Below, piece after piece: positions 44,558 to 52,983 of a stretch of 64,000 bases of DNA (within the stretch, counting starts at the first letter, position 1; each line of letters starts with the position of its first letter). The notes under the pieces were generated by a model, which made no database searches, was not told the DNA's origin, and saw only the letters and a list, made by a program, of their open reading frames with translations. Made by a program: the position numbers and the translations under genes. The stretch is from Corynebacterium caspium DSM 44850 (lineage in GTDB: Bacteria; Actinomycetota; Actinomycetes; Mycobacteriales; Mycobacteriaceae). The stretch spans positions 124,001 to 188,000 of the forward strand of contig NZ_CP047118.1 in the NCBI RefSeq assembly GCF_030440555.1, written 5' to 3'.

Positions 44558-44633
44558 GCCGCCTTAGCTCAGTCGGTAGAGCGTCTCACTCGTAATGAGA
44601 AGGTCGCGAGTTCGATTCTCGCAGGCGGCTCCA
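44558..44633 (+). tRNA. tRNA-Thr (anticodon CGT)
   Basis: The acceptor arms GCCGCCT and AGGCGGC pair over seven bases, with discriminator T and an encoded CCA (44631-44633). The anticodon stem TCTCA/TGAGA encloses CTCGTAA, which gives anticodon CGT. The T arm is TCGCGAGTTCGATTCTCGC-like. The foreign segment begins just downstream, but no second copy of the tRNA 3' end was seen on its right side. Confidence 0.96.
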
Positions 44634-44731: not shown

Positions 44732-44940
44732 CATATTCGAAGGCTAGTGTGGGCGGCGTTGGAGAGCGCCTGGACGGTGGGTTTGTCCCCGGTGTAGGAG
44801 GGCTTGACAACACAGATTTGTCCCAGGCTGTTGCGGAATAGTGTGTTGTTGGCACTGAGACGTCGAGCGACGGCTGTAAGGGCGTCGAGCACGCCACGCC
44901 GTCGAGGAACGTAAGCGGCGGCTCGCCCGTCAGCGCGTTG
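44731..44940 (-). pseudogene. C-terminal fragment of an unknown gene
   Basis: Reading from the junction near 44940 towards a TGA at 44731, the frame encodes about 65 residues (RADGRAAAYVPRRRG, RRLSANNTLFRNSLGQICVV, ending HTSLRI). Codon use is GC-rich and regular, so it was once coding. The frame has no start and runs on at its left end into the antisense of the next fragment. The family is not recognised. Confidence 0.4.
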
Positions 44941-45495
44941 CCAGCCAACAACGAACTGAAAGTAGTTCAGGAATATCTCAACAACGTTCAGGCAATGCAA
45001 AAGACGATTCTTCAGCTTCTCGGACAGCTAGCGGACACTCAACCGCTCAGCGACGAGGAAGCCAAGGGGCTGCGAAGCAGCCTTCGGCAGCAGAACGTGC
45101 GCGGCGAACAGCTCGGGCGAACGCTCGAAAGTCTCGACAAAAAAGTAAAGACGATGGACTCAGCCTTTAAGGAGCTGTCTGCCAAAGTCGAAGCTGACCA
45201 TAAGGTGCAGCTGAACACTCGCAACGTGGCGAATGCGCTTGCTCGCACTATGAACCTGGATAAGGTTCATGAGACGGTAACGCAGTGGCAGGTTGCTGAG
45301 AGTAATCGCGTTAAGCGGGCTGCGGAGCAGGCCGACGAGACGTGCGAGATGTTGAAGGAGTCGGTACGGAAGTCGGAGCGCCAGTTGGAGCGTATTCGCC
45401 AGCAAACGTCGATGTTTGGCGGCGGTATTAAGGCTTTTTCGGTCGGCTTTTTGATGCCGTTCGCTCTGGTGTTGTTCTCCGTCACGGTTGTCACG
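44938..45495 (+). pseudogene. Coiled-coil, membrane-tailed protein fragment
   Basis: About 185 residues. A long charged coiled coil ([20 protein letters not shown] to [14 protein letters not shown]) is followed by one C-terminal membrane helix, [20 protein letters not shown]. The layout resembles plasmid mobilisation accessory proteins or the tail of a relaxase, but this is not certain. The reading frame is open for about 25 codons upstream of a possible TTG start without an ATG, and after the helix it runs into antisense recombinase sequence. It therefore seems cut at both ends. Confidence 0.45.
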
Positions 45496-45654
45496 CGATG
45501 CGCCAGAAACCTTATCGGTGAAAATGAAGCGTTCCTCGACGCCCTCGGCTTTAAGCGCTTCGATCTGTCGGGAGAGGTTTTGGTCGGCAGAGGACACGCG
45601 GGCATAGCCGATTCGGATCGATTGTGTCGGAGAAAGACCACCTTCTGTACTCAT
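45490..45654 (-). pseudogene. Serine recombinase (resolvase), N-terminal fragment
   Basis: From ATG 45654 the frame gives about 55 residues, including [23 protein letters not shown] with the catalytic serine, and ending [11 protein letters not shown]. This is the start of a Tn3-family resolvase/invertase catalytic domain. After SRD the similarity stops abruptly and the frame enters the antisense of the coiled-coil fragment, so about 130 residues are missing. The 100 bases upstream, with two TGTCGG motifs (within 45656-45662 and 45723-45728), could be what is left of its res site. Confidence 0.75.
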
Positions 45655-45839
45655 GTGTCGGTTATACAGGATGTGAACCCTGCCTACACTGGTCACTGGC
45701 ATAGTAAGGAAGATGTAGGGAGTGTCGGAAAAGGTGTACCCGTCCTACATATCTTTGTTTAGACCCCTCACCATAACGTTCTCTTAATCTCTAACATAAA
45801 TGAGTCACACGCTATTCCTCTTAAACAGGAAGGACGACC

Positions 45840-46406
45840 ATGAAGCACCATTTTCTAAAAACATCCCTTGCATCAGGGCTAGCTCTCGCCGCTATTTTCG
45901 GTGCGCAGCCAGCAGCTAATGCAGAACAACCTCTTCAAACAAGTCCACAAGCAGGATCATCCTCAGTACAAGAAAATTTGTCTGAAGGGGAGAAGGTTCT
46001 TGCGATTGGCTAAGATGGCTTTATGAGAACCATCAACACGAACGACAGCGGAAATCACAAACGAGGTGAGATTCGCAATGATTTGAAGCTGGCTGAAGGC
46101 GACACACTCACCCTTTCACAGGACAAGAAGACTGCAACCCTCGTCGATTCCAAGGGGACTGTGCTCGGAGAATTTAAAGCCCCCGCCATTGAAGTGGAAG
46201 GGCATACATTCGATGGAGTTTTCACGGTTGATGGAGATTCGTTGATCACAGGACTTCCCTCCGATTCACCCTTGAGGCAGGAGCGGAGCTGCTGGCGGGG
46301 TAACACCGCGAAATGGACATGGCGTGTGGCCGGTGCCGCCACCTGTGGTCTTGCCTGGGCTGGAGCCGAAGACATGATGCACATTGATGACCGTGTTTGC
46401 CGATGA
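45840..46406 (+). pseudogene. Secreted protein gene interrupted by one stop codon
   Basis: ATG 45840 follows AGGAAGGA by six bases. It starts a signal peptide (MKHHFLKTSLASGLALAAIF to ANA) and 57 codons up to TAA at 46011-46013. The same frame then continues without a break for 130 more codons to 46406 (DGFMRTINTNDSGN, AIEVEGHTFDGVFTVDGD, then a Trp/Gly/Ala-rich end with three cysteines, CWRGNTAKWTWRV to VCR). A single sense-to-TAA change explains this. An ATG at 46023 could restart but has no ribosome site. Size, secretion and the Gly/Trp/Cys-rich end would suit a bacteriocin-like precursor; this is inference only. Confidence 0.6.
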
Positions 46407-46654
46407 AGAAGTTTGACAGCTCTAAACCAAGCAGTTGGATACGCGTCTGGGTAGCCCTGGTATTGGGAACATTACTGGGCTCCTATCTTGTTCCAGCGCT
46501 CTCCTGGAAAATAGGAAATGACTCTGATTGGTCAAACGCGTTTCAACAAGGCTGGAACAACTTGCTAGATAACGGGGTTCCTACAGTCATCTTCCTCACA
46601 GGTCTACTTGTAGTTATCCTGCTGTTTGTTTTCTTCAACAAGAAAACAAAGTAA
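46403..46654 (+). CDS. Small two-helix membrane protein
   Basis: An 83-residue protein with membrane helices at about 13-35 and 58-78 and a basic C-terminus (FFNKKTK). Its ATG overlaps the stop of the secreted-protein frame as ATGA, so the two were translated together. A small membrane protein coupled to a secreted peptide is a common layout for a bacteriocin and its immunity protein. It could equally be a membrane partner of unknown role. A terminator follows directly. Confidence 0.55.
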   Translation: MKKFDSSKPSSWIRVWVALVLGTLLGSYLVPALSWKIGNDSDWSNAFQQGWNNLLDNGVPTVIFLTGLLVVILLFVFFNKKTK

Positions 46655-46657
46655 GAG

Positions 46658-46712
46658 AACATACTGCACCACTATTTACCCGTAAGGGCATAATGTGATG
46701 CAGTATGTTTTT
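46658..46712 (+). terminator. Terminator
   Basis: AACATACTGCA (46658-46668) and TGCAGTATGTT (46699-46709) pair perfectly and are followed by T residues. It ends the secreted-protein/membrane-protein unit and also faces the end of the polymerase gene. Confidence 0.75.
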
Positions 46713-46719
46713 CATATGT

Positions 46720-49700
46720 TTAGGCCAACCAGTCGGGGATACTGTCGGGGTGGTTCTGGCGGTATTCCCGGCTCATTTCAGGCCAGTCGGCGTGCTCGTC
46801 GCGGTACACATCAGCCCAGTCCCCGCCTTCGGCTGCGAAGTCAGCCAGGATCGGCACGGGGCGGTCTTTTGGCTTGATACGGAAGTCGAAGGTGAACGCG
46901 GTGTGCAACTGCTTCTTGACGTCCTCTACTCGGTCTGAGGGCACAGAGAGCACGATTTCATCGTGGACAATGGCTCGCAGGTAGCTGCGTAGTTCACGGG
47001 GGAGGCGTAACAGGCACTCGGCCATAATGTCGCGGGCTGTTCCCTGTCCGATTGCAGCCGGGGCTTGGGTGTACGCCTTATCGGGGCGGATACGCATACG
47101 CCGCCCGAACGCATTGCGGATGATCTGCTGTTGGGTTCCGGTGTAAATGACGTCTCGTTTGAACTGAGCGATTTCAGGGTAGGTCTGTTGCAGCTTGTCG
47201 AGCATGCCAGCGGCAACAGCACTGTGCATGTCTTGGCCGGGTTCGAGAGCGTCGAGGTAGGCCGCGTCCTGGCTGTGGGCACCCATTGCTCGAGCGTCGA
47301 TCTGAGACAAGTCGATAGCAACCAGAACGTCGCCGGGATCAGGCAAGAACATAGCTCGTTGTGGCGCATTTTTACGCTCTCGCTTGCCGAGAGTGGTTAG
47401 CGCTGGGTTGGTGAGACTGAACCGGCCTGTTGCCTGGGACGCTGCGAGATCGGGGTGGACTCGCCCGGAACGAACGTGCTTGGCAACGGTGTCGGCTACT
47501 GAGGACTCACCGGATAGCCGGATAAGTGCTTTGAGCAGTTCATCGGCTTCGGAGCCGGGTTGAACGTTGTCGCGGCACTGTTGAAGGTCGCTGGCTCGCA
47601 TGGAGAGGTTGCCCGACTTGGCCGTGTGGGGTACGTCAATGCCGAGACGGCTAAAGACGTCTTCAAGGATTTCTCGACCGGCTTTCGATGCCTGTGGCTT
47701 CTTCTTGTCTGCGGGCAGTCCGTAGGTGGACACCAGAAGGTGACGCGCGTCCTCGGTGCGCTGAGCTTCGGTGTGCTGAAGCTGAGCAATGAAGTGTTCA
47801 TCGACACGGAACCCGTTGCGAGGGATAAAGCTCAGTAGACGCATGACCTCGTGTTCACGCCAGATGTAGCTGTCCACAGCCTGCGTGTGTGCAACTTCAC
47901 GAGTCAGTTCGACGTACTGGACGAGGTATGCACGGTAGTCATCGTTGTCCGTGGGGATCGCGTCGAAACCACCGTAGGTGGTGGCGAGGTTCTTCAGGAC
48001 AGTCTGGCCATTGCGCGAGAGCTTCCCGGTCTTCCCGTAGCGTTGAGCCACGGCGTCCAAGCTGTACGAATAGTTCTTCTGAGCGGACAAGGGCGGGTCG
48101 ATCTGACGAGAGGTGAGCAGGGTGTCAACAACCTTGCGTTCGTCAATGAGACGATCAACGTCAAGATCGGTTTCCAGCTCGATTGCGGGCAGGTCAAAGT
48201 TGACGATGTTGTGACCGACAATGAGGTCGGCGGAGGCCAGGACGTCGGCTAGTTCCTGTACGTCGGTCGTGATGGTGACATCACCATCATTGACGGCATA
48301 ACCGCACAGTCGAATAAAGCCGTGTCCGTAGGTGTAGAGCTGGTCGGCATCGGCGGTTTCCACGTCGAAGTAGACCACGCGCTTGTTGTATGCGGTAGAG
48401 CTAAACGGGAACCCTGTCATGCCGTCGATGCGGCGTTCAATACGAACAGGTTGATTGTTGACTACGGCGTCCACACGGGGTGCGGTTTTATCGTTAAATG
48501 GCGCGATGTCGGCTTGGTGCTCGTCACTAGGGTCGGGCTGAGCAACAACCTCATTGTCAGTGCTCACGGTCGGTGCCATTGTGTCGGCTTCGCACCACTC
48601 CCACGGATCGGAAACGTCAGGGTCAGGAGCAGGAGTCACCGGAGGTGTTGGCTGCGGCGACGTGGGGTTTGACCCACCACCTCCGCTACCGGGGTTATTT
48701 TTCCTGGTCAACACCCATGTTCGGGATCGTGCTCGACCGCTGGTGCTGGTGAGTTTCAGCTCGTCGTAGACGCGCCCGTCGTGCTGGGAGAGGTAGCGTC
48801 CGATCATGGCGGGGGACACGTCGGAGAGGTTGGCTGGGCGGAACGTGATGCGGGAACTTTGAAGCGCATCAGAGAGCAGGCTCGATGTAAACGACGCCTT
48901 GTTGATGTTGGCCAGGAAGTGAGTGAACCCCGTGAACTGAAGGATTCCGCCGATGGTGCAGAACCATTCGTCGAAGGATTCCAACGGGTTTTTCATGTCT
49001 GGCTTGGGTTGGCCTGCTACAAACCACGCTCGGATGATGGTGAGACAATCTTGGAGCAATGCTCGGCGGTTGTCGGTGATGTACCGAGTGATGTTCGGGA
49101 TCAGGAAGTCGCTGCGCTCTTTAGGATCGTCCACCAGTGTCGAGCGGAGCTGGATTGGGCAGGAACGACGGTTGACGTCGGCAGATGCGTTGATGCCATT
49201 GCCGAGGGCGAACATGACTGCGCCGTTTTCCAGTTTGAGCAGTTCGTTAGACCCCAGACGGCGGTAGTTGACACGGCTGGATGTCAAGGCGGTTCGTAGG
49301 GATTTGAAGTTGAAGCCTGTGAGGGAACCCTGCTCGTCTTTTGTTTCATCGAACACGATAGAGGTTTCACCAGCGAGAAGGAACGCGGCAAGCCGTTTTT
49401 CCATCTCGGTATCGTCGGACGGCATGACAGATGATGCCGGTTCAAAACCTTGGGTAATCAGGTGCAGGGACTGCATGAGACGGCTTTTTCCTGTACCGGG
49501 TTGTAGACCGTCGATTAGGAACAACGGAGAGTTCGGCATGTTGGGTCGCACGAACATCGTGAGCAGAGCAGCAATGGCGTTTGTCTGGTCAATGACGGAC
49601 GAGAACATCCATGCGTTTTTACCCTTCGTACCCTCCATTGCGAAGACCGTGAGTAGGTGCTGACGAGCACGATCAACCTGTTTTTTCGTGGGTTTTTTCA

Positions 49701-49998
49701 GCACGGTTAGATCGCGGATAGCCGGGTCAAGAACGATGTACATTCCCGTTTCCTCGTTGTAGCCGTCCCTGGTGACAATCTCACCTTTGGGGGTCACAAT
49801 GGGCGTGCTGGACACGCCTTTGATGGTTTTCAGGGCATCTTGTAGCGGCGGGTATTCAATGAAGGCAGCCCATGTTTGAGACGGGATTTCGCGGCTTAGC
49901 GGCTGGTAGTTGCAGCCGTATCCATAGTCGAGGGCTTCTTTGACCCTGGCCTCGCCCTTCGAGTCGGCAGGTGCCCAGATGTTGCGTAGCGTTTCCAC
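46720..49998 (-). CDS. Helicase-DNA polymerase A fusion, probably damaged
   Basis: A 1092-residue protein. Residues about 100-320 form a phage/plasmid-type ATPase with Walker A GLQPGTGKS (164-172) and Walker B SIVFDETKD (213-221). A Pro/Gly/Ser-rich linker (435-465) follows. Then comes a DnaQ-like exonuclease with Exo I YFDVETAD (543-550) and Exo II LIVGHNIVNFD (592-602). The family A polymerase part has motif A DLSQIDARA (896-904), FGRRMRI (964-970) and motif C IVHDEIVLS (1010-1018). Motif B, with its conserved Lys and Tyr, is missing between about 945 and 955, and Exo III has Tyr695 where Asp is expected. GTG 49998 is only a nominal start: the frame is open to a TAA near 50110 without a better start or a ribosome site. 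It is most likely the remains of a plasmid or phage replication protein. Confidence 0.7.
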   Translation of the reverse strand: METLRNIWAPADSKGEARVKEALDYGYGCNYQPLSREIPSQTWAAFIEYPPLQDALKTIKGVSSTPIVTPKGEIVTRDGYNEETGMYIVLDPAIRDLTVLKKPTKKQVDRARQHLLTVFAMEGTKGKNAWMFSSVIDQTNAIAALLTMFVRPNMPNSPLFLIDGLQPGTGKSRLMQSLHLITQGFEPASSVMPSDDTEMEKRLAAFLLAGETSIVFDETKDEQGSLTGFNFKSLRTALTSSRVNYRRLGSNELLKLENGAVMFALGNGINASADVNRRSCPIQLRSTLVDDPKERSDFLIPNITRYITDNRRALLQDCLTIIRAWFVAGQPKPDMKNPLESFDEWFCTIGGILQFTGFTHFLANINKASFTSSLLSDALQSSRITFRPANLSDVSPAMIGRYLSQHDGRVYDELKLTSTSGRARSRTWVLTRKNNPGSGGGGSNPTSPQPTPPVTPAPDPDVSDPWEWCEADTMAPTVSTDNEVVAQPDPSDEHQADIAPFNDKTAPRVDAVVNNQPVRIERRIDGMTGFPFSSTAYNKRVVYFDVETADADQLYTYGHGFIRLCGYAVNDGDVTITTDVQELADVLASADLIVGHNIVNFDLPAIELETDLDVDRLIDERKVVDTLLTSRQIDPPLSAQKNYSYSLDAVAQRYGKTGKLSRNGQTVLKNLATTYGGFDAIPTDNDDYRAYLVQYVELTREVAHTQAVDSYIWREHEVMRLLSFIPRNGFRVDEHFIAQLQHTEAQRTEDARHLLVSTYGLPADKKKPQASKAGREILEDVFSRLGIDVPHTAKSGNLSMRASDLQQCRDNVQPGSEADELLKALIRLSGESSVADTVAKHVRSGRVHPDLAASQATGRFSLTNPALTTLGKRERKNAPQRAMFLPDPGDVLVAIDLSQIDARAMGAHSQDAAYLDALEPGQDMHSAVAAGMLDKLQQTYPEIAQFKRDVIYTGTQQQIIRNAFGRRMRIRPDKAYTQAPAAIGQGTARDIMAECLLRLPRELRSYLRAIVHDEIVLSVPSDRVEDVKKQLHTAFTFDFRIKPKDRPVPILADFAAEGGDWADVYRDEHADWPEMSREYRQNHPDSIPDWLA

Positions 49999-50134
49999 GG
50001 TGGGGTGCTCGGCACGAAGGTCGGCGGGATAGATGTAGGGCGCGAAGGCGGACGCCAGTTGGGCGGCCTCGGGCGGCCTCGGGGGCGGCGGCGTTACTCC
50101 TGCTTTTTAGCTGAAATATTATCCCTTTATCTCT

Positions 50135-50167
50135 GCTGACGCTGACATGCGTTAGGTCAGCGCCAGC
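50135..50167. repeat. Inverted repeat at the right edge of the foreign segment
   Basis: GCTGACGCTGAC (50135-50146) pairs with GTCAGCGCCAGC (50156-50167) except for one mismatch. It lies between the cut end of the polymerase gene and the host-like genes. It may be a terminator for the 50212-51415 operon or a mobile-element end. Confidence 0.55.
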
Positions 50168-50211
50168 AGTGAATTGAGATGGGTTTTTATTTATTTATGC
50201 AGCTAACCAGG

Positions 50212-50508
50212 CTAACTATTTACGCCGGCAAGCACTATAACTATAGGAATCAAAAATAGTACTAAAAACCCAAAAGTTTTTACCAACCGGCTTTTTAGTT
50301 TAAAGGAAAGCGCAATAATAGTTAGTCCGGACAATACAGTATAGGCATATAGGTAGTTTTGTTGATGGTCGGTTAGTCGAGTGAAAAAAGTAACTGGTAT
50401 AACTAGGAAAACTAGGGTCCAGGCAGTTATGAGTGCACTTTTTGGTTCAGTGTTTCCGTAGAAGGACCATTTGGTATTTTCAAAGAATGACCACGTCGTG
50501 TTTTTCAT
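50212..50508 (-). CDS. Small membrane protein, last gene of the PLA2 unit
   Basis: A 98-residue protein with three predicted membrane helices (about 24-44, 50-66, 76-96) after a polar N-terminus that contains the repeated phrase FFENTKWSFYGNTE. The family is not recognised. Its start overlaps the stop of the upstream gene by four bases (ATGA). As the third gene of a unit led by a secreted phospholipase-like protein it may protect the producing cell or help export; this is inference. Confidence 0.65.
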   Translation of the reverse strand: MKNTTWSFFENTKWSFYGNTEPKSALITAWTLVFLVIPVTFFTRLTDHQQNYLYAYTVLSGLTIIALSFKLKSRLVKTFGFLVLFLIPIVIVLAGVNS

Positions 50509-50876
50509 GATGGTAGCTCCTCTACGTATTGCACAACGACTTCACCGTGACCAAATAAGCAGCCCGTGGATAGCTCGTAGTTATTCGAAGTAATCCAAGA
50601 GGTTGAAGCATCCGGATAGAAATTGCATTCCATCTGAACACGCGCATATTTAGCGCCTTCAATGTCACCACAACGCAACCACACCCAATCTTGTTCACCA
50701 GGCATCCAGTGCCCCCACTCTTTAATCAGTTCTGTTTCGCAACCTGTTGCGGGCAAAGATTGCACTGGAATATCTCGGTCTTCATAGCAAGATTTGGCCA
50801 CAAATACGACTACAAATAGCCAGAAAAATAGTTCCAAGTACTTGAAAATAGCAATATTTCTTTTAGGAGTTGTCAT
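50505..50876 (-). CDS. Membrane-anchored small protein, middle gene of the PLA2 unit
   Basis: 123 residues. One N-terminal helix (about 10-28, LELFFWLFVVVFVAKSC) is followed by an outside domain with three further cysteines (TGCETELI, RCGDIEGAKY, TGCLFGHGEV). This suggests a small disulfide-bonded domain held at the membrane. The family is not recognised. It overlaps the genes on both sides by four bases. Its position makes it the best candidate for a partner or inhibitor of the secreted PLA2-like protein. Confidence 0.65.
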   Translation of the reverse strand: MTTPKRNIAIFKYLELFFWLFVVVFVAKSCYEDRDIPVQSLPATGCETELIKEWGHWMPGEQDWVWLRCGDIEGAKYARVQMECNFYPDASTSWITSNNYELSTGCLFGHGEVVVQYVEELPS

Positions 50877-51415
50877 TTTCTACACCACAATCTTGCAGCT
50901 TTGAAAAAAGCGACAATTGCATTAGCTGTGTGCTTTTTGCGTCCTTCGAATGATCCTTTTATAGATTCAATTTCGGCGATTAAATTGGCATCACAGAAAC
51001 ATTTGAAATATCCGTTAGCTCCGTAGCATTCATCATGTCGCATACACGCTGCATCAAGGTCATCCATCGGCGCTTGAGGTCCTGAATGCCGAGGCCCGCA
51101 CCAATGGCCCCAGACCTTATTAGCCCAGCGAGAATATGGATCCTGAACAGCTAAAGAATAGTCGTTGAAAATTTCGCCAGTTTCCAATATTTCTGGAGAC
51201 GCGCCTGCAGCAATAGCACGTTCCATATCGAAGCTCAGCTTTAAGCCGCGATCCTGCACAACAACATATTCCAAAATGGCGGCTTCGTTATCGACTAGCG
51301 CAATATCTGTATTAGTTATATCTAGAAGAGGTGTAGCTTCCGAGGCATTTGCTGGTGCTGTTAGAAAAGCTGAAAACAACAGCAAAGAAATTGCAACATT
51401 TTTAAAAAGCTTCAA
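50873..51415 (-). CDS. Secreted phospholipase A2-like protein
   Basis: A 180-residue secreted protein. The signal peptide runs to about residue 24 (LTAPANA). The PLA2 core is clear: the calcium loop CGPRHSG (106-112), then LDAACMRHDECYG, in which His127 and Asp128 form the catalytic pair within the C-x-x-H-D-x-C motif. Additional cysteines at 139, 141 and near the C-terminus (LWCRK) would form disulfides. Such enzymes release fatty acids from the sn-2 position of phospholipids. It starts a three-gene overlapping unit with two small membrane proteins. The 51416-51631 gap carries its promoter but no gene. Confidence 0.82.
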   Translation of the reverse strand: MKLFKNVAISLLLFSAFLTAPANASEATPLLDITNTDIALVDNEAAILEYVVVQDRGLKLSFDMERAIAAGASPEILETGEIFNDYSLAVQDPYSRWANKVWGHWCGPRHSGPQAPMDDLDAACMRHDECYGANGYFKCFCDANLIAEIESIKGSFEGRKKHTANAIVAFFKAARLWCRK

Positions 51416-51631
51416 TTCTTGCCTCCTCTAATAACAGAGCAACAGAGATAATCTCCAATACAGTGTTGAACTTAAGTTGTCAGCCGAACTGTCTTAATAA
51501 TAAAAAACCTGTCTCTACTAGTCAATAGAATTGAAAAATTTTTCTGGAATTTTCGGCGGAACGCCGTCCAAAAGCAAGTTCAAAGTATTTATTATAAGAA
51601 TCGTTTATTTAAATTTGAGGAAATTATGAAA

Positions 51632-51659
51632 ACCCCTCCTGCAATAAAGCAGAAGGGGT
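51632..51659 (-). terminator. Terminator of the dipZ-sigK-rskA operon
   Basis: ACCCCTCCTGC (51632-51642) pairs with GCAGAAGGGGT (51649-51659) apart from a central mismatch. On the minus strand it is followed by TTTTC. Confidence 0.6.
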
Positions 51660-51706
51660 AAAACTAGCAGAGCTTAAAACTAGCTAAGCAAAGTACTGTT
51701 AGTAGG

Positions 51707-52432
51707 TCATTTCATCGGAATATCTGCCAGCATATTTTCTTCCGAACCATCTTTTTTCTCTACCGTTAGCATCACGGAATCTCCGCGATCAGGCATATCG
51801 GTGAGCATCGTAAAATTGCCTTTTTGTCCAGAATATTCCCCAATGGAATTCATTTCTTGGCCTTTTACCAGCCAAGCTTTGACCATCATGTCATCGGGCA
51901 TATCCATATCGGCAGGCATGACCAATGCCGCTGCATGGGCTTCATAAGACCACACCAAGCGGATGGTATGGCCATCTTCGGTGGTATAGGTGGTTTGGGT
52001 ATAGTCCGAAGCTTCATGGATAGCGGCGAAAACTTCGGTATCTGCCATATCGTTCATGGTCACATAACGTCCACCGCCAAATCCGCCAACTACCAGCAAT
52101 AAGCTAGCTGCCACGGCGGTAAAGGCTCGGCTCAAACGACGGTTGCGATACTCCGAAATATCAGTGACATTCCCGCCACCAGCAGGTGGCGTAACTTCAG
52201 CATCAACAACCGTTGCGGCATCATCCGGCACAGCATCCGCATCCGCCACAACATCCGGCACAGCAGCAGCTGCGCCATCCGTCGCAACAGTGTTGCGGTC
52301 GTCATTTTCGAGTCGCTGCATGAGTTCAGCTTTTAGGGTCGGGGCCACTGCTATCGGTTCCGCAGAGAAAATATCGTCGGCTAATAGTTCGGCCTCAAGG
52401 CTTCCGAAAGGAACGGGGTCGTATTTATTCAT
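51707..52432 (-). CDS. rskA: Anti-sigma-K factor
   Basis: A 241-residue RskA-type anti-sigma factor. The N-terminal cytoplasmic part holds a variable Ala/Asp/Val-rich segment (about 45-85). A single membrane helix (about 103-125, AVAASLLLVVGGFGGG) leads to an outside domain with YTTEDGHTIRLVWSYEAHAAALVM and MVKAWLVKGQEMNSIGEYSG, the RskA signature. It holds SigK at the membrane until regulated proteolysis frees it. Its start overlaps the sigK stop by four bases, so the pair is made in balance. Confidence 0.88.
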   Translation of the reverse strand: MNKYDPVPFGSLEAELLADDIFSAEPIAVAPTLKAELMQRLENDDRNTVATDGAAAAVPDVVADADAVPDDAATVVDAEVTPPAGGGNVTDISEYRNRRLSRAFTAVAASLLLVVGGFGGGRYVTMNDMADTEVFAAIHEASDYTQTTYTTEDGHTIRLVWSYEAHAAALVMPADMDMPDDMMVKAWLVKGQEMNSIGEYSGQKGNFTMLTDMPDRGDSVMLTVEKKDGSEENMLADIPMK

Positions 52433-52983
52433 CGCTCCTCCAAAGCGTGTCGCAGTTGGGTTATACCGCTTCGCACGCGGGTTTTTAAGGTGCCGAGGGG
52501 AATTCCCAGGTATTCTGCGGCCTGTTGGTGGGTCATCGAGCGGAAGAATACCGCGTCGATACTTTCTCGAATCGCCGGTGAAAGCTTTTGTACTGCCGTG
52601 GCTATTTCTTCTTGTGCCTCACGGGCTAAGAAGTCCACTGGTACTGAGTCACCAGTGGATTCTGGTTCACCTACGGAAGTATAAGCTTCGCGCTGCTTGC
52701 GGGCTTCGTTGGTGCGCACATAATCAATGGCGCGCCGTCGGGCAAGCACCGCCAGCCAAGCTTGGGCACTCCCTCGCTCGGGGTCAAAGGTGGAGGCTTG
52801 CTCCCATATTTGCCACATTGTTATTTGCAAAATATCTTCGGCAACCTGCTCATTGAGCACTACCTTGCGAATATATGCCAACAAATAACCAGCTACGCGG
52901 TCATAAAGATGAGAGAAAGCTTCCTGATCTTGGCGTCCCACCGCAATGAGAAGCGCGGAGACTTCGTCTTTCAAAGCATTCAC
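52429..52983 (-). CDS. sigK: ECF RNA polymerase sigma factor SigK
   Basis: A 184-residue ECF sigma factor. Region 2 shows VAGYLLAYIRKVVLNEQVAEDILQ-type sequence and SAQAWLAVLARRRAIDYVR; region 4 shows MTHQQAAEYLGIPLGTLKTRVRSG. The adjacent RskA identifies it as SigK. In mycobacteria the SigK regulon includes dipZ with mpt70/mpt83; here dipZ lies directly upstream on the same strand, 40 bases away, so the regulator and a likely target share one operon. No MPT70-like gene is seen in the window. Confidence 0.88.
   Translation of the reverse strand: MNALKDEVSALLIAVGRQDQEAFSHLYDRVAGYLLAYIRKVVLNEQVAEDILQITMWQIWEQASTFDPERGSAQAWLAVLARRRAIDYVRTNEARKQREAYTSVGEPESTGDSVPVDFLAREAQEEIATAVQKLSPAIRESIDAVFFRSMTHQQAAEYLGIPLGTLKTRVRSGITQLRHALEER

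What the first reader, a model, noticed from the sequence alone, without database searches (positions are those of the whole stretch)
46720..50110. Helicase-polymerase A fusion lacking polymerase motif B
Seen: one frame joins a P-loop ATPase, a proline-rich linker, a 3'-5' exonuclease and a family A polymerase. Motif A, the FGRR stretch and motif C are in place. The sequence runs from FKRDV directly to IYTG, where family A polymerases have R-D/x-x-x-K-x6-YG plus about 40 more residues. So the O-helix with the nucleotide-binding Lys and Tyr is gone, without a frameshift. Known: that helix is essential for polymerisation. Inference: either an in-frame deletion in a dying replicon, or a protein kept for its helicase or scaffold role.
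Basis: partly seen in the sequence, partly recalled or inferred. Interest (0 to 1): 0.72.

Follow-up and report, generated by a model that had tools for sequence, protein, structure and literature searches.

The report
Broken replication enzyme of mobile element
A bacterial chromosome carries a left-over copy of a mobile element's one-piece DNA-copying enzyme that has lost its front part, the nucleotide-binding part of its polymerase and one proofreading residue, so it is most likely a dying gene and of modest interest.

Summary
The 1128-codon frame at 46720-50106 (-) joins a helicase, a proline-rich linker, a 3'-5' exonuclease and a family A polymerase, and motif B is absent. The place is wrong: FKRDV-IYTG aligns without a gap. 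About 40-50 residues are missing upstream of it, between DMHSAVAA and LDKLQQ (window about 47192-47202).

Motif B is present in 17 of 17 same-genus relatives that hold the stretch, and in the one phage and one plasmid relative examined. The other phage, plasmid and viral-contig hits were not checked.

Two further losses point to decay: some 300-360 N-terminal residues are gone, and an invariant Exo III aspartate is tyrosine. The nearest copy (64% over 157 residues) is itself shattered. Of 21 same-genus relatives, 11 are intact in one frame.

Elsewhere the protein looks about as conserved as an equally diverged relative, so it died recently or its helicase is still used. Best reading: a recently dead remnant of a mobile element's single-chain replicase. 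Phage phiAsp2 Pas55 already shows the helicase-polymerase fusion.

The parts
46720..50106 (-). open frame, 1128 codons stop to stop (stop codon included in coordinates); first usual start GTG at 49998; remnant of a helicase-exonuclease-polymerase fusion
48898..49833 (-). helicase (P-loop ATPase) module, residues about 92-403; Walker A 49483-49509, Walker B 49345-49362
   Evidence: matches to relatives; coordinates
48373..48897 (-). stretch between helicase and exonuclease, with the P/G-rich linker
47890..48372 (-). 3'-5' exonuclease module, residues about 579-739; Exo I 48355-48372, Exo II 48193-48219
47914..47916 (-). residue 731: Tyr where 12 of 12 full-length relatives in the alignment have the Exo III Asp
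   Evidence: column is Asp in a solved DNA polymerase I
46756..47865 (-). family A polymerase module, residues about 748-1117, motif A 47293-47319, motif C 46951-46971
47192..47202 (-). junction where the fingers segment with motif B is absent (150 bases shorter than G227)
45163..45702 (-). frame with a truncated resolvase (profile positions 2-59 of 145 matched), probably another remnant of the same element (inference)
   Evidence: matches sites in three relative loci
44558..44633 (+). tRNA-Thr gene at the edge of the decayed island; no attachment-site repeat found

Best explanation
A remnant of the single-chain replicase of a mobile element (in relatives: N-terminal TOPRIM-like part, helicase, G/P-rich linker, 3'-5' exonuclease, family A polymerase), lying in a decayed island next to a tRNA-Thr gene. 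Its 5' third is lost, an in-frame deletion of about 150 bases has removed the fingers segment with motif B, and the Exo III aspartate is changed. Shown: these sequence differences and the intact state of relatives. Inferred from established knowledge of family A polymerases: without the motif B residues the enzyme cannot bind incoming nucleotide and cannot polymerise, and without the Exo III Asp proofreading is lost or much weakened. Inferred: it is a recent pseudogene whose frame is still open; the helicase part could still hydrolyse ATP if the protein is made.
For: Motif B is kept in 17 of 17 same-genus relatives that hold the stretch and in phiAsp2 and one Streptomyces plasmid. Loss of the N-terminal part: relatives run 303-362 residues further before the helicase, and a full-length relative (G208) finds no N-terminal match in the window's genome. 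Exo III Asp to Tyr in an otherwise invariant column. Neighbouring frames are frayed, with a resolvase cut to positions 2-59 of 145, and none of 1263 frames (>100 codons) from 23 relative loci matches the window outside the gene at 1e-6. Copies break often: of 21 relatives, 4 are disrupted (G015, G100, G220, G227), 1 keeps only the helicase part (G232) and 2 only a C-terminal stub (G136, G033).
Against: The frame is open over 1128 codons with no stop or frameshift. Changes at conserved positions are close to those of the equally diverged G174: 16 of 103 against 12 of 99 in exonuclease plus polymerase; the helicase shows 5 of 36 against 1 of 32, but G159 has 6 of 37. Against G227 the C-terminal DNA differs mostly at third positions (30 of 128, 24 of 128, 73 of 127), so constraint held for most of that divergence. 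No strain-level data.
Confidence: 0.8

Rival explanations
1. A polymerase-dead replicase kept by the host or element for its helicase, the polymerase half serving as a DNA-binding scaffold.
For: Open frame; Walker A and B intact; little excess change at conserved columns. A precedent for conserved A-family relatives that have lost catalytic residues: 5 of 17 mobile-element 'Pol' proteins are little more than a palm core and judged unlikely to be active (PMC10061031, section 3.2 read).
Against: No other copy with this gap among the relatives read; the N-terminal part is gone too; it lies among decayed genes.
Confidence: 0.13
2. Assembly or sequencing error: the stretch is present in the real genome.
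For: Reads were not available; the gap rests on one assembly.
Against: The difference is a clean multiple of three, the genome is one contig, and two independent lesions point the same way.
Confidence: 0.04
3. A still active polymerase that binds nucleotide in another way, or gets the missing segment from another protein.
For: Motifs A and C are kept.
Against: No compensating insertion is seen in the alignment; in the window's genome the only other match is a distant 24% one in a 911-codon frame, presumably the chromosomal PolA.
Confidence: 0.03

Closest known systems
Pas55 of Actinoplanes phage phiAsp2 (AY576796, 43304-47551)
   Same: helicase and exonuclease-polymerase in one chain; matches window residues 90-1101 at 31.5%
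   Different: has motif B, annotated CDS of 1415 codons, from a phage
Same-genus fusions of 1384-1493 codons (11 intact frames, e.g. G208, G073)
   Same: same order helicase, linker, exonuclease, polymerase, 38-43% identity in the exonuclease-polymerase half
   Different: have the N-terminal part, motif B and the Exo III Asp
G227 remnant (L092)
   Same: nearest sequence, 64% over residues 969-1125; also decayed
   Different: broken into several frames and deletions, but keeps motif B and the Exo III Asp in its pieces
TV-Pol and CcPol-MP family (PMC2579912, PMC7581432, PMC10061031; passages seen)
   Same: A-family polymerase working with a primase-type helicase on mobile elements; some relatives have lost catalytic residues
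   Different: TV-Pols are reported never to be fused to nuclease domains; here an exonuclease module is in the same chain

Membership tests
DNA polymerase family A (PF00476), by descent | significant match to the family profile | tested here: met
   1.9e-29, 103 bits against cut-off 34.3
Active family A DNA polymerase | motif A (palm Asp) | tested here: met
   AIDLSQIDA, 47293-47319
Active family A DNA polymerase | motif B (fingers, Arg/Lys/Tyr/Gly) | tested here: not met
   absent; present in 17 of 17 same-genus relatives holding the stretch
Active family A DNA polymerase | motif C (His-Asp-Glu) | tested here: met
   IVHDEIV, 46951-46971
3'-5' proofreading exonuclease of PolA type | Exo I and Exo II acidic residues | tested here: met
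   FDVET and GHNIVNFD align with relatives
3'-5' proofreading exonuclease of PolA type | Exo III Asp | tested here: not met
   Tyr at residue 731, Asp in 12 of 12 others
Single-chain TOPRIM-like-helicase-exonuclease-PolA replicase | helicase, linker, exonuclease and polymerase in one frame | tested here: met
Single-chain TOPRIM-like-helicase-exonuclease-PolA replicase | N-terminal TOPRIM-like part | tested here: not met
   absent in the window and not found elsewhere in the genome with one relative as query
TV-Pol family | no fusion to nuclease domains | tested here: not met
   exonuclease module in the same chain; criterion from PMC2579912
Complete mobilisable element | relaxase beside the replicase | tested here: not met
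   none of 1263 frames from 23 relative loci, relaxases among them, matches the window outside the gene at 1e-6; one relaxase finds nothing in the genome, without a positive control
Pseudogene | stops or frameshifts | tested here: not met
   the frame is open
Pseudogene | loss of essential parts seen in functional relatives | tested here: met
   N-terminal part, motif B, Exo III Asp
Pseudogene | not transcribed or translated | not testable with these tools
   no expression data

The most novel reading that the evidence does not exclude
The window protein is a polymerase-dead, proofreading-dead replicase kept for its helicase: one step on a recurrent path in which these single-chain replicases lose the polymerase half (G232 keeps only the helicase part; G136 and G033 only a C-terminal palm stub) and the helicase then works with host polymerases.
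Probability: 0.1. Interest if true: 0.55.

Novelty: new member of a known kind. Interest (0 to 1): 0.2.

Why it matters
As it stands it is an ordinary broken mobile-element gene. The defect is unusually clean (in frame, two catalytic centres hit, the rest little changed), so it is a fair place to ask whether a polymerase-dead replicase can persist. The intact relatives matter more: a one-chain TOPRIM-like-helicase-exonuclease-PolA enzyme, often near relaxase genes in one genus, would be a compact replication system to study.

Tried and rejected
Rejected: a gap at FKRDV-IYTG (no gap there). Rejected: a loss of motif B shared by the genus (17 of 17 relatives that hold the stretch have it). Weakened: a phage as the nearest context. 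The 40 phage rows listed of 1193 reach at most 34.5% identity, while a relaxase-like cluster of frames lies near the gene in 11 of 23 relative loci (Pfam relaxase in 8 of 9 of these frames scanned). An FtsK-type cluster occurs in 9 of 23 loci (PF01580 in 4 of 4 scanned), but the window's own chromosome holds a 45% identical protein in a 1254-codon frame, so these may be chromosomal genes and I do not lean on them.

Not conclusive: the test for relaxed constraint. G015, G220 and G227 were left out of the counts and of the exonuclease and polymerase counts because they are incomplete there; G015 was left out of the helicase count as close to G174; G208 was not in that helicase alignment; columns with any gap were dropped. 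dN/dS between the G136 and G033 stub frames is 0.50 on few changes, and 0.45 for the long frame before them, which decides nothing.

Without result: attachment-site repeats. Named genomes gave 2 distant loci. Viral contigs gave 37 loci, which I did not check for motif B; of 1193 phage and 74 plasmid records with a match I checked one each. In the order, 5 genomes besides the window's own, of 298 searched, match at 1e-20, all in the helicase part only. A few other same-genus genomes show second, weak matches (for example G018, G061, G135, G155) that I did not follow. Structure prediction never ran: the machine was busy at eight tries.

Literature: the searches listed no paper on this fused replicase in this genus; that covers only the held library and those words, and I judged listings by title and start of abstract. 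Passages were seen of PMC10061031 (plus section 3.2), PMC7581432, PMC3218068, PMC2579912 and PMC11348598 (plus the section on two novel phage PolAs). The genus is named by no call; I think it is Corynebacterium (inference from gene content, genome sizes and number of species). The names and roles of motifs A, B, C, Exo I-III and Walker A/B, and the reading of DUF3854 as TOPRIM-like, are recalled.

Full report
Observation. The minus strand holds one open frame from 50106 to 46720, 1128 codons, with the first usual start codon at 49998. Pfam finds DNA_pol_A at 1.9e-29 and, below its cut-off, DUF5906 over residues 200-306. PHROGs finds a phage DNA polymerase family at 1e-73 over the C-terminal half and, over residues about 93-402, families of unknown function and one polymerase/primase family. 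Motif A, motif C, the FGRR stretch, Walker A and Walker B are present.

Relatives. Of 242 genomes of the same genus, 20 including the window's own match at 1e-15. Two more (G136, G033) match only with a C-terminal piece. Of these 21 relatives, 11 hold one open frame of 1384-1493 codons that runs from an N-terminal part to the polymerase end (G073, G028, G097, G161, G110, G159, G122, G137, G143, G064, G208). For G137 the match runs past the stop that ends its frame, but the frame ends like the others. G174 has the same content in two overlapping frames of 898 and 630 codons. Four are disrupted: G015 and G100 change frame in the exonuclease-polymerase half, G220 carries a Mutator-family transposase frame between its two polymerase-half pieces, and G227 is in several pieces with an internal stop. 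G232 shows only the helicase part within 16 kb. G136 and G033 keep only a C-terminal stub. G032 and G034 lie at contig ends or on a 3-kb contig. That makes 11 + 1 + 4 + 1 + 2 + 2 = 21.

The gap. The window has one gap against these relatives, between DMHSAVAA and LDKLQQ; FKRDV-IYTG has none. It is 50 residues shorter than G227, 48 shorter than G174 and 40 shorter than most others. The stretch R-R-x-x-A-K...Y-G, which a profile of the family aligns with motif B of a solved DNA polymerase I (8oo6_A, 2.8e-50; Klenow fragment entries score next), is present in 17 of 17 same-genus relatives that hold the region: the 11 intact ones, G174, G015, G034, G208, G220, G227 (G208 is one of the 11) and G100. 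It is also in phiAsp2 and in a Streptomyces plasmid. The DNA comparison with G227 gives a best length difference of 150 bases (106 matches; the next best, 149 bases, has 105) with the junction between 47192 and 47202. The loss is in frame and, among the relatives read, private to this genome.

Further lesions. The Exo III aspartate, the same in 12 of 12 other full-length sequences, is tyrosine at residue 731; the pieces of G015 and G227 also keep Asp, and the solved polymerase has Asp in that column. Relatives run 303-362 residues further before the helicase than the window does, counted from the upstream stop codon (from the coordinates); two intact relatives have a weak DUF3854 match there, below the curated cut-off. 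No part of this N-terminal stretch is found in the window, and G208's finds none in the genome. The G+C of 50001-52000 is 0.433, against 0.555-0.562 for 46001-50000, and other genes follow upstream.

Surroundings. Between tRNA-Thr (44558-44633) and a sigma factor with an anti-sigma-K factor (51707-52983) lie frayed frames, one with a resolvase matched only at profile positions 2-59 of 145. It is 47-51% identical over 39-47 residues to sites in three relative loci (L064, L067, L076). None of the other 17 flanking frames tested matches any of 21 relative loci, so the insertion sites appear to differ. A relaxase-like cluster lies near the gene in 11 of 23 loci. That the family belongs to mobilisable elements as well as phages is therefore inference.

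Selection. In exonuclease plus polymerase the window deviates at 16 of 103 columns invariant in the 12 others; G174, equally diverged, at 12 of 99. By part, window against G174: exonuclease 6 of 35 and 4 of 33; polymerase up to the gap 6 of 41 and 5 of 40; after the gap 4 of 27 and 4 of 27; helicase 5 of 36 and 1 of 32, with G159 at 6 of 37. Against G227 over 383 bases of the C-terminal part the differences are 30 of 128, 24 of 128 and 73 of 127 at first, second and third codon positions. This speaks against long neutral decay and fits recent death or continued use.

Verdict. Motif B is absent through a private, in-frame loss in a gene that has also lost its front and one proofreading residue. 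Polymerase activity is very unlikely (established knowledge of family A polymerases). The most likely account is a recently inactivated remnant of a mobile-element replicase; a kept helicase is possible but has no positive support. The fused helicase-polymerase architecture is already present in phiAsp2 Pas55. No structure could be computed (last try).

Noticed in passing
L076 (G136) and L077 (G033), frames of 206 codons at L076:7440-8057 and L077:6900-7517: Two species keep a short frame with only the C-terminal palm part (motif C) of this polymerase family, about 97% identical to each other, near a relaxase-like gene and after a 935-codon frame without Pfam match.
   Followed up: partly
L061:7540-12070 (G174) and L062 (G015): In these two relatives the replicase is split into two frames that overlap by about 53 bases, helicase part first; a frameshift, translational coupling or a damaged fusion are all possible.
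   Followed up: no
window 50873-51415 (-), with 50212-50876 (-): Low-G+C gene with a sub-threshold phospholipase A2 match (4e-6) and two small frames before the sigma-K-like pair; probably acquired separately.
   Followed up: no
window 44938-45762 (+) and 46023-46654 (+): Frayed frames without Pfam match, the first overlapping the cut resolvase on the other strand.
   Followed up: partly
G000:C1:1545069-1547363 (-), outside the window: An FtsK/SpoIIIE-type protein in a 1254-codon frame, 45% identical to the FtsK-type protein near the replicase in G028; perhaps a type VII secretion ATPase (recalled resemblance).
   Followed up: no
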